Under the pieces are notes generated by a model, which searched no databases, had not been told where the DNA came from, and worked only from the letters and a program-made list of their open reading frames with translations. Positions 51,700 through 54,280 of a stretch of DNA of 64,000 nt are shown piece by piece. Source of the stretch: Byssovorax sp. (lineage in GTDB: Bacteria > Myxococcota_A > Polyangia > Polyangiales > Polyangiaceae); the NCBI GenBank assembly GCA_025362495.1, contig JANYGI010000126.1, positions 32,001 to 96,000 of the forward strand, written 5' to 3'. How positions within the stretch are numbered: position 1 is the stretch's first letter; each line of letters starts with the position of its first letter. The translations under genes were made by a program, and so were the position numbers.

Positions 51700-52170
51700 T
51701 CATTCGCTCGGGGTCGCGGTGCCGAAGGGCGGCTTCGAGGAGATGTGGATACGGTTGATGACGTCCCGAGGCAGGGCGTCGAAATCGGTGTCCAGGGTGA
51801 GCAAGGTTGCGCCTGTTGCGCGGGTTGCCGCAGCAATCCACATATCATTCTCCCCTACGTTGGCGCGTGAGCCCTTCGGGTGCTTCCTCAATGACTCATA
51901 AATCACGGCATAGCTCTCGATGACAACCTCGTCGCTGATATCGACGGCCACCAGCGAATCGAGCATCATGTCGATGTTCTCACGCTGGGCGTCGGTGAAG
52001 CCATGCACGCGGCTGAGCGCCGCCAGCTCGCCGTGGGTGACGATGCAGACGCAGGCATTGCTCAGCTTCGTGCTGAGCCCATAGGTTGTCGCGATGTGGG
52101 TGCCGAGCGCCTTCCCCTTGTCGAGTACAACCAGGATGTTCGTATCGAGAAGATAAAGTTCGCCAGGCAT
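51700..52170 (-). CDS. PIN-domain ribonuclease, putative toxin (VapC-like)
   Basis: 156 residues. PIN fold: LLDTNILVVLD with Asp9, HGELAAL with Glu48, GENDMWIAAATRATGATLLTLD with Asp109, and TDFD with Asp129. These acidic residues fit the metal site that cuts RNA, often tRNA or rRNA in VapC toxins. It follows its upstream partner by nine bases on the same strand. The partner is not a short VapB-type protein, so assignment as a toxin rests on the pairing. A GC content slightly lower than neighbouring genes hints at transfer. Confidence 0.88.
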   Translation of the reverse strand: MPGELYLLDTNILVVLDKGKALGTHIATTYGLSTKLSNACVCIVTHGELAALSRVHGFTDAQRENIDMMLDSLVAVDISDEVVIESYAVIYESLRKHPKGSRANVGENDMWIAAATRATGATLLTLDTDFDALPRDVINRIHISSKPPFGTATPSE

Positions 52171-52179
52171 CGGGATGAC

Positions 52180-53130
52180 TCAGCTCATCTCGGCGAGCAA
52201 CGCGAGGAGCTCTTCCTCGGTCTCGGGCCCAGGCCACTTCCCGAAGAAGGCGTTGACCCCCGAGCTCGCTGTCTGCGGCTTTCGGTAGTCGGCCGCGGCT
52301 CGCGCCGGTCGAAGGAGAGGACGTGGAACCTTCGACCAGATCGACGGTTGACCCGCGCCCGCTTCGACGCTGTCTGCGTCCAGGCGGAGCACGCGACCCG
52401 AGGGTCGGTACACCGCGCGACCGAGGACGAGCACCCGCTCGTTCACCAGCGCGCACAGGGCGATGGCATTGCCGTCGGTGAGAACGCCCCTCACTTCGTT
52501 GCCGTCGTCGAGATGGATCGCGAAGGACTGCGTGCTCATCCGCAACATATCGAGCCGGCCGACGACGCGCACTTGGCGGCTCTTCGGCGTTGCCTCGCTG
52601 AGCCGTCGCGCGATCTCGACGGTGGCCTGGTCGAGCACGGCTTCGCCGGGCTTCCCGCTGCGATGCTCCTCGATACCTACCCGGTCAAAGTCGCCTTCGA
52701 GTAGCCGGCGGAAGTGCGCGATGTGCTGAAGTAAAGGCCGGTCGAAGCGCTCGCTGTCCTCGTCGCCCGCGCCGACATCCTGGAGAACGCCTGCCAGCGC
52801 ATCGAAGCCCGTCCACTCCGGAGGCGGTCGTGTCGTCCACATCTCGGTCTGGCGGTAGAGCTCGCCCGCAGCCTCGCCGAACGTAGGGGCCTCGAAATGG
52901 AGGAGGGTCTCCTCGTCGCCGTCCATCCCCAGAAAGCGGACGTCGCACGCGGAGTTGAACCACGCGCGCGGTCGTCCGGTGGCCACGCTCCGCCCCTCGA
53001 ACGCCATCAGCACCGAGCGCCTCACGCCTGTCTCGACCTGCTGGAGCGCCAGGCCCACCGAGGACGGCGGAACATGCTTGCCGAAGCGCTTCGGACCGGA
53101 AAGGCGGACGGTGTGGTGGACGGACTGCAC
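52180..53130 (-). CDS. Unrecognised partner of PIN protein, candidate large antitoxin
   Basis: 316 residues from the GTG at 53130, chosen for AAGGAG eight bases upstream. N-terminal region (VRLSGPKRFGKHVPPSSVGLALQQVETGVRRSV) is unlike known antitoxin DNA-binding domains. A beta-rich OB-like stretch lies at about 185-258 (VRVVGRLDMLRMSTQSFAIHL, VLVLGRAVYRPSGRVLRLD). The last 25 residues include FFGKWPGPETEEELLALL, resembling the toxin-wrapping tails of VapB/Phd-type antitoxins. Its position just upstream of a PIN gene supports an antitoxin role; a nuclease accessory or RNA-binding role is also possible. I do not recognise the family. Confidence 0.75.
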   Translation of the reverse strand: MQSVHHTVRLSGPKRFGKHVPPSSVGLALQQVETGVRRSVLMAFEGRSVATGRPRAWFNSACDVRFLGMDGDEETLLHFEAPTFGEAAGELYRQTEMWTTRPPPEWTGFDALAGVLQDVGAGDEDSERFDRPLLQHIAHFRRLLEGDFDRVGIEEHRSGKPGEAVLDQATVEIARRLSEATPKSRQVRVVGRLDMLRMSTQSFAIHLDDGNEVRGVLTDGNAIALCALVNERVLVLGRAVYRPSGRVLRLDADSVEAGAGQPSIWSKVPRPLLRPARAAADYRKPQTASSGVNAFFGKWPGPETEEELLALLAEMS

Positions 53131-53440: not shown

Positions 53441-54280
53441 ATGCGCTCCTACCGACTACTCAACCTCTCCGATCTGAAGCTGGGTCTCGACGACCTCCAC
53501 GACAAACGCCACAAATCGCTCATCAGCTCGACCACGGGGAAGAGCTACGAGCCGATGCTGGCCAACCGGCGGATTGCCGTCAACGCGCTGCCTGCGGCGC
53601 TCACCGGAGGTAAGCCGCTCGCGAGCGAGCTTGCTGAAGCTGACGCCCTCCACGATGGAATCGGCATCTCGGCCTGGCACATGACCGAGAGCTACTTCCG
53701 GAACCCCAACACACCTGCCGAGCAGCTCGACGCCGCCAGGCGCATTCGCGCGGCCTTCATCCCCACTCTGCTGGAGCTCAGCGCCAGCTACGCCACCGAG
53801 GCTGAAGCCGCGATCAAGCGTCAGCCACTCCTCAAGACCCTCAAGGCCGATCTCCAGATGTTCCCCATCGCCGGCGGACTCACGATGTTCGACTGGGTGA
53901 GTGACTTTCTCGCTGCCGGCCAGTCCCTGCACGGGATGCTGAGCGAGCGCGCCGACGTCGACGACACCGGACGCAAAGACGCTCACACGCTCCGCACGAG
54001 CACGATAGGCCTCCTGAACCGCTGCCGCGCCGCCCTCGCCGACGAGATGGACGACAACGCGAAGTTGCCGCGGAACCTCGATCAGCAGGTGTTCGCTTAC
54101 TTCGATGAGCTGGAGACGATGCGAGTCACCGCGGCTGCCGCGTCCAGGGCTGCCGCGAAGGCCGCAAAGGCGACGAAGGAGGCCAAGGACGCAAAGGGCA
54201 CCAAGGACGCGAAGGACGCCGAGCCGGCGAAGCCCGAGGCGGCGGTGCCCGTGGAGGCCACGAAGACCGAGCCCGCATGA
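53441..54280 (+). CDS. Hypothetical helical protein with Lys/Ala-rich tail
   Basis: 279 residues, no signal peptide. Residues 1-225 are mainly helical (LLNLSDLKLGLDDLHDKRH, LELSASYATEAEAAIKRQ); the layout is like some uncharacterised families but I cannot name one. Residues about 228-279 are an Ala/Lys tail with repeats (AKATKEAKDAKGTKDAKDAE), similar in composition to histone-H1-like tails, suggesting nucleic acid or acidic-polymer contact. Divergent from the PIN pair, so it may be part of the same unit. Confidence 0.75.
   Translation: MRSYRLLNLSDLKLGLDDLHDKRHKSLISSTTGKSYEPMLANRRIAVNALPAALTGGKPLASELAEADALHDGIGISAWHMTESYFRNPNTPAEQLDAARRIRAAFIPTLLELSASYATEAEAAIKRQPLLKTLKADLQMFPIAGGLTMFDWVSDFLAAGQSLHGMLSERADVDDTGRKDAHTLRTSTIGLLNRCRAALADEMDDNAKLPRNLDQQVFAYFDELETMRVTAAAASRAAAKAAKATKEAKDAKGTKDAKDAEPAKPEAAVPVEATKTEPA

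What the first reader, a model, noticed from the sequence alone, without database searches (positions are those of the whole stretch)
51700..53130. PIN nuclease paired with a large unknown partner: candidate new toxin-antitoxin system
Seen: a PIN protein with its four acidic residues starts nine bases after a 316-residue gene on the same strand. The partner's last residues (FFGKWPGPETEEEL) look like an antitoxin tail that fills a PIN active site, but the rest, including an OB-like beta stretch, is not a known VapB/Phd/AbrB domain and is three to four times their size. Inference: a toxin with an antitoxin that may also bind nucleic acid.
Basis: partly seen in the sequence, partly recalled or inferred. 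Interest (0 to 1): 0.66.

Follow-up and report, generated by a model that had tools for sequence, protein, structure and literature searches.

The report
PIN toxin with unusual OB-fold antitoxin
A myxobacterial gene pair looks like a toxin-antitoxin module in which a VapC-like RNA-cutting enzyme is paired with an antitoxin of an undescribed kind: a 316-residue protein with a single-strand-binding-like (OB) fold and a highly conserved tail that probably plugs the toxin.

Summary
Window 52180-53130 (-) encodes a 316-aa protein with no family match; nine bases on, 51700-52170 (-) encodes a 156-aa PIN protein (Pfam PIN 8.5e-10). In Myxococcota genomes the pair is conserved: 27 places hold most of the partner gene, 23 have an intact PIN gene directly downstream, 20 of these overlapping by ATGA. 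Conversely, 20 of 21 PIN genes of this clade carry an intact or damaged partner; next-nearest PIN genes with a recognisable upstream partner follow small RHH/AbrB-like antitoxins, so the large protein sits in the antitoxin's slot. Distances of the two proteins correlate (r = 0.80). PIN acidic residues D9, E48, D109, D127 are invariant. The predicted partner (pLDDT 86) is an alpha/beta domain, an SSB/RPA/PriB-like OB fold, a variable linker and a tail (G-x-W-P-G-x-E, then a helix) that is its most conserved part. Best reading: a type II toxin-antitoxin pair with VapC-like toxin and a new antitoxin family. Not shown: toxicity, neutralisation, tail in the active site (a read-through model left it unresolved), nucleic-acid binding. 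Decay patterns do not prove direction: intact PIN occurs beside a broken partner at least twice. New variant of a known kind; interest about 0.5.

The parts
51700..52170 (-). PIN-domain (VapC-like) nuclease gene, 156 aa, putative toxin
   Evidence: PF01850 8.5e-10; D9, E48, D109, D127 invariant in 23 homologues; Foldseek of the modelled PIN half to VapC chains 5ed0, 5k8j at E 3.7e-6
52180..53130 (-). 316-aa partner gene, putative antitoxin of a family without a name; GTG start
   Evidence: No family match; homologues start and end at the same places; 23 of 27 places have an intact PIN gene next door
52591..53130 (-). Codons 1-180: N-terminal alpha/beta domain, fold not identified
   Evidence: AF2 model of alignment A4
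52351..52581 (-). Codons 184-260: OB fold with a conserved G-x-A-x-(Y/F)-R-x-S-G-type loop between the last two strands
   Evidence: AF2; Foldseek RPA14 E 3.1e-3, prob 1.00; VIA-align Z 8.0-8.2 to SSB and PriB chains; conserved columns
52261..52350 (-). Codons 261-290: variable linker
   Evidence: Highest column entropy of the protein, 2.29 bits; pLDDT about 60 from residue 271 on
52183..52260 (-). Codons 291-316: conserved C-terminal tail (G-x-W-P-G-x-E then helix), putative toxin-neutralising segment
   Evidence: Lowest entropy of the protein, 1.38 bits, core 1.05; helix 305-315; profile search finds it almost only in this family
52171..52179 (-). Nine-base junction; in 20 of 23 intact pairs it is an ATGA overlap instead, in L002 and L031 a gap of 15 and 4 bases

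Best explanation
A type II toxin-antitoxin module. The downstream PIN protein is a metal-dependent ribonuclease of the VapC kind (shown by sequence and fold; its RNA target is unknown). The upstream 316-aa protein is its antitoxin: the two are made together from coupled genes, and the conserved C-terminal tail (aromatic-Gly-x-Trp-Pro-Gly-x-Glu, then a short helix), joined by a flexible linker, docks on the PIN domain and blocks its acidic site (inferred). The body, an alpha/beta domain plus an SSB/RPA-like OB fold, takes the place of the DNA-binding domain of ordinary VapB proteins and probably binds nucleic acid, either the operon's own DNA or mRNA for autoregulation, or single-stranded nucleic acid as a trigger (inferred, weaker).
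For: Pairing: 27 places with most of the partner, 23 with intact adjacent PIN on the same strand, 20 with ATGA overlap. Reverse: 21 PIN genes of this clade above 150 bits: 18 beside the partner, one split from it by an insertion, one beside a partner wrecked near an IS66-like end, one alone; the next hit drops to 73 bits. PIN genes outside the clade in the same class that have a recognisable upstream partner follow small antitoxin-like genes (RHH, AbrB-like) in the same gene order. Partner and PIN distances correlate, r = 0.80, none of 20,000 permutations reach it. PIN catalytic residues invariant; VapC structural match. Tail most conserved, linker least. Patchy presence, about a tenth of class genomes (34 of 317), and a G+C dip to 64-67% against 71-72% around fit a mobile module.
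Against: No experiment. The single-chain ANT-PIN model did not raise confidence of the tail, so tail docking is unproven. The expected asymmetry (toxin lost first) is not clean: PIN is broken or lost beside a largely intact partner in four places (L035-L038; L035 also lacks its start), but PIN is intact with the partner frameshifted (L028) or replaced (L095), and there is an orphan PIN in the same genome, though with E48 changed to D (L113). The tail has no invariant Arg of the kind that fills the site in FitAB (own knowledge). No operator-like palindrome or promoter was recognised upstream.
Confidence: 0.78

Rival explanations
1. The pair is an anti-phage defence module rather than a plain addiction module: the OB-fold protein senses single-stranded nucleic acid or phage SSB-like structures and releases or directs the PIN nuclease.
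For: OB fold matches SSB, PriB, RPA. Distant whole-length structural match to a DUF6575 phage protein (E 5.4e-8); DUF6575 occurs in a defence system found by selection in E. coli (PMC9519451). In Sorangium-like genomes the pair lies directly before a type I hsdM gene.
Against: PADLOC has no match. The window's own neighbourhood is ordinary chromosome (alanine racemase, dihydroorotate dehydrogenase, named from the translations). Sequence link to DUF6575 is not significant (hhalign probability 1.7%).
Confidence: 0.25
2. Not a toxin-antitoxin pair: the two proteins form an RNA- or DNA-processing enzyme, with the OB protein as substrate-binding subunit and the PIN protein as the nuclease; the tail is simply the subunit contact.
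For: Tight pairing and co-variation would be the same; OB folds commonly present substrates; intact PIN beside a broken partner exists.
Against: Patchy, decaying, mobile-like distribution does not suit a housekeeping enzyme; antitoxin-first overlapping order and the VapC subclass fit TA; PIN genes outside the clade in the same class carry small antitoxin-like genes in the same slot.
Confidence: 0.15
3. The 316-aa protein is a VapB-type antitoxin whose DNA-binding domain (RHH, AbrB, Phd, HTH) has diverged beyond profile recognition.
For: Antitoxins diverge fast; tail and gene order are antitoxin-like.
Against: AF2 model with pLDDT 86 shows an alpha/beta domain and an OB fold; no Pfam antitoxin match in any of 10 members, none in NCBIfam for the window protein.
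Confidence: 0.04

Closest known systems
VapBC (PIN toxin with VapB antitoxin), including FitAB
   Same: PIN-fold toxin with four acidic residues, downstream of the partner in an overlapping operon; partner ends in a flexible tail with a short helix; modelled PIN superposes on VapC chains
   Different: Partner is 316 aa with alpha/beta and OB domains in place of a 70-100 aa protein with RHH/AbrB/Phd/HTH domain; the tail motif G-x-W-P-G-x-E has no credible match among PDB chains
PIN-associated antitoxin families predicted by Makarova et al. 2009 (PMC2701414): DUF433/COG2442, AbrB-like, COG1753 RHH, MerR-like
   Same: New partner families found beside PIN genes by gene neighbourhood
   Different: The passages read name helical, AbrB, RHH and HTH families; the term OB-fold does not occur in that paper's main text
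DUF6575 proteins (PF20215) and Leptospira phage LE1 protein Q6NE06
   Same: Whole-length Foldseek match of the partner model (E 5.4e-8 and 1.6e-6); the alignable part starts after the DUF6575 domain
   Different: Sequence comparison not significant; the partner lacks the N-terminal DUF6575 domain and adds the tail; DUF6575 loci seen here show no PIN gene beside them
SSB, PriB, RPA14 OB-fold proteins
   Same: OB fold of residues 184-260, Z about 8, rmsd 2.2-3.4 A over 69-79 residues
   Different: Fold only, 13-24% identity; ssDNA-binding aromatic residues not examined

Membership tests
PIN-domain nucleases (VapC group) | Match to the PIN profile above its cut-off | tested here: met
   PF01850 39.7 bits against cut-off 23.6
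PIN-domain nucleases (VapC group) | Conserved acidic active-site residues | tested here: met
   D9, E48, D109, D127 invariant in 23 of 23
PIN-domain nucleases (VapC group) | VapC fold | tested here: met
   Foldseek 5ed0 E 3.7e-6, TMt 0.82; predicted model
Type II toxin-antitoxin systems | Two adjacent co-oriented genes conserved together | tested here: met
   23 of 27 places; reverse 20 of 21 with intact or damaged partner
Type II toxin-antitoxin systems | Toxin harms the cell and antitoxin neutralises it by direct binding | not testable with these tools
   Needs expression and binding tests; single-chain model did not resolve the contact
VapBC | Antitoxin with a VapB-type DNA-binding domain (RHH, AbrB, Phd, HTH) | tested here: not met
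   No such domain in Pfam or NCBIfam scans; model shows other folds
VapBC | Antitoxin C-terminal segment in the PIN active site | tested here: inconclusive
   Tail conserved but unplaced in the model
DUF6575 (PF20215) | Match to the Pfam profile over its cut-off | tested here: not met
   No Pfam match at E <= 1; own-genome scan hits a different gene, C61:2119-2352
OB-fold proteins | Five-stranded OB barrel with helix between strands 3 and 4 | tested here: met
   Predicted strands 185-197, 202-206, 212-217, helix 222-228, strands 232-241, 247-257; Z about 8; prediction only

The most novel reading that the evidence does not exclude
A family of antitoxins built on an OB fold that ties a VapC-type toxin to a single-stranded nucleic acid signal: binding of phage or stress-made ssDNA or RNA by the antitoxin body changes its hold on the toxin, so the body is a sensor and not only a repressor.
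Probability: 0.2. Interest if true: 0.78.

Novelty: new variant of a known kind. Interest (0 to 1): 0.5.

Why it matters
PIN toxins are among the commonest toxins in prokaryotes, and their antitoxins are nearly always small transcription factors. A conserved PIN partner three to four times larger, with an OB fold, would be a new antitoxin family and suggests that these toxins can be wired to a nucleic acid signal. It can be tested directly with a two-gene clone, and the tail gives a short peptide that should neutralise the toxin on its own.

Tried and rejected
Direction from decay (antitoxin outlives toxin): dropped as evidence, since L028 and L095 keep PIN with a damaged partner. Tail as a general mobile degron or tag: a profile search of 306 class genomes found it almost only in this family; standalone or fused copies (L010, L011, L012, L013) look like recombination or deletion remnants. 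Tail against PDB antitoxins: no credible match. Plasmid, phage and viral-contig relatives: none, at the sensitivity of tblastn or short peptide patterns. The genome-contig scan found one further member. Body as DUF6575 member: no profile match; hhalign probability 1.7% although colinear. First fused alignment A5 was misaligned and not used; A6 replaced it. No VapB chains appeared for the partner model in pdb or pdb_via, but the lists were filled by the OB domain, so this is not a test of the N-terminal domain.

Full report
What is there. The minus strand holds two genes, 52180-53130 (316 aa, GTG start) and 51700-52170 (156 aa), nine bases apart. The second matches PF01850 PIN at 8.5e-10, with weak VapC matches in NCBIfam and PDB. 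The first matches nothing in Pfam, NCBIfam, PADLOC or PHROGs below E 0.5. The genome holds one copy of the 316-aa gene.

Conserved pairing. Searches of Myxococcota genomes and one scan of public genomes gave 27 places, the window included, that hold most of the gene. In 23 an intact PIN gene follows on the same strand; in 20 of these stop and start overlap as ATGA, in three (the window, L002, L031) they are 9, 15 and 4 bases apart. In four the PIN gene is broken, split off or deleted (L035-L038). Starting from the PIN side, a profile of 23 PIN proteins finds 21 strong members in 289 class genomes, then a drop from 150 to 73 bits. Of the 21, 18 lie beside the partner (in G467 frameshifted near its start, in G523 cut by the contig end); G579 has an insertion of about 1.5 kb between the two; G521 keeps only a frameshifted partner end next to an IS66-like transposase end; one in the window's own genome (C64, L113) is alone, with catalytic E48 changed to D. 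The next-nearest PIN genes were inspected one by one: where an upstream partner can be recognised it is a small RHH, AbrB-like or similar gene of about 60-110 aa in the same slot; some had no clear partner. Pairwise distances of partner and PIN correlate at 0.80 over 21 pairs; no permutation of 20,000 exceeded 0.58. Related sequences are not independent, so this shows joint inheritance, not contact.

Anatomy of the partner. AF2 with 23 sequences gives pLDDT 86, pTM 0.80: alpha/beta domain (1-180), OB fold (184-260), linker, tail with a helix at 305-315. The OB part matches RPA14 and SSB chains in Foldseek (best E 3.1e-3, prob 1.00) and SSB, Rim1 and PriB at Z 8.0-8.2, rmsd 2.2-3.4 A. Z near 8 is also a common level for unrelated folds, but here the top rows are nearly all OB proteins and cover the whole domain. 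Conserved residues cluster in the OB part (G191, L193, D194, G210, G237, R242, S244, G245) and the tail (G297, W299, P300, G301, E303). Column entropy is 1.93 bits in the N domain, 1.72 in the OB, 2.29 in the linker, 1.38 in the tail and 1.05 in its core. A conserved tail behind a variable linker is how toxin-binding segments of type II antitoxins look (own knowledge); it is not proof.

The complex. The two genes are in frame, and table 4 (TGA as Trp) reads the window as one 476-aa chain, as it does for L002. A model with an unpaired alignment (A6) has pLDDT 86 overall, but the tail stays at 46-61 and the junction below 50. Its PIN half matches VapC structures (5ed0, 5k8j, 3zvk). A four-residue linker and single-chain AF2 are a poor test, and I could not look at the coordinates. 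The placement of the tail is open.

Relatives of the body. The only whole-length structural matches are viral: A0A8S5QA00, named DUF6575 (E 5.4e-8), and Q6NE06 of Leptospira phage LE1 (E 1.6e-6), with low TM-scores of 0.3-0.4. DUF6575 is one of the domains in the E. coli defence systems found by functional selection (PMC9519451). Against four DUF6575 proteins the family profile aligns colinearly from the end of the DUF6575 domain on, but without significance. I therefore treat DUF6575 as a structural lead, not as membership.

Mobility. The family is patchy: 34 of 317 class genomes including fragments. G+C falls to 64-67% over 51-54 kb against 71-72% on both sides. Several copies are decayed.

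Conclusion. A type II toxin-antitoxin pair is the best reading (0.78). Shown: pairing, order, fold and active site of the toxin, sequence novelty of the partner, predicted OB fold, conserved tail. Inferred: toxicity, neutralisation by the tail, nucleic-acid binding. By its toxin it works like VapBC; it is not VapBC by its antitoxin. The literature search found no description of an OB-fold antitoxin of a PIN toxin, in an open-access library only.

Noticed in passing
L013:1492-2142 (-): A DUF4411 PIN-fold protein (PF14367, 6.6e-52) carries this antitoxin family's tail fused to its own C-terminus, behind an M78/ImmA-type peptidase gene: a toxin joined to a foreign antitoxin tail, possibly by recombination.
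   Followed up: partly
L010:1483-1680 (+) and L012:1501-1599 (+): Small open frames holding only the tail follow a wHTH plus nucleotidyltransferase pair that resembles AbiEi/AbiEii; in L012 the start is lost. Probably remnants.
   Followed up: partly
L113 (G000:C64:81107-81508, -): Orphan PIN gene of the same clade in the same genome, without partner, catalytic Glu replaced by Asp, beside a remnant of a type I hsdM gene.
   Followed up: partly
L076 (G000:C61:2119-2352, -), L115, L116: Two-gene loci of an unknown protein of roughly 130-150 aa followed by a DUF6575 protein; one lies about 82 kb from the finding on the same contig. DUF6575 is known from an E. coli defence system.
   Followed up: partly
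L033:2838-3897 (+), L036, L038: In Sorangium-like genomes the toxin-antitoxin pair lies immediately before a type I restriction hsdM gene; the PIN gene is frameshifted or deleted in some species while the hsdM start stays.
   Followed up: partly
window 53441-54280 (+): Divergent neighbour, 279 aa with an Ala/Lys/Glu-rich end, belongs to an unnamed family with up to six copies per genome in the same family of bacteria.
   Followed up: no
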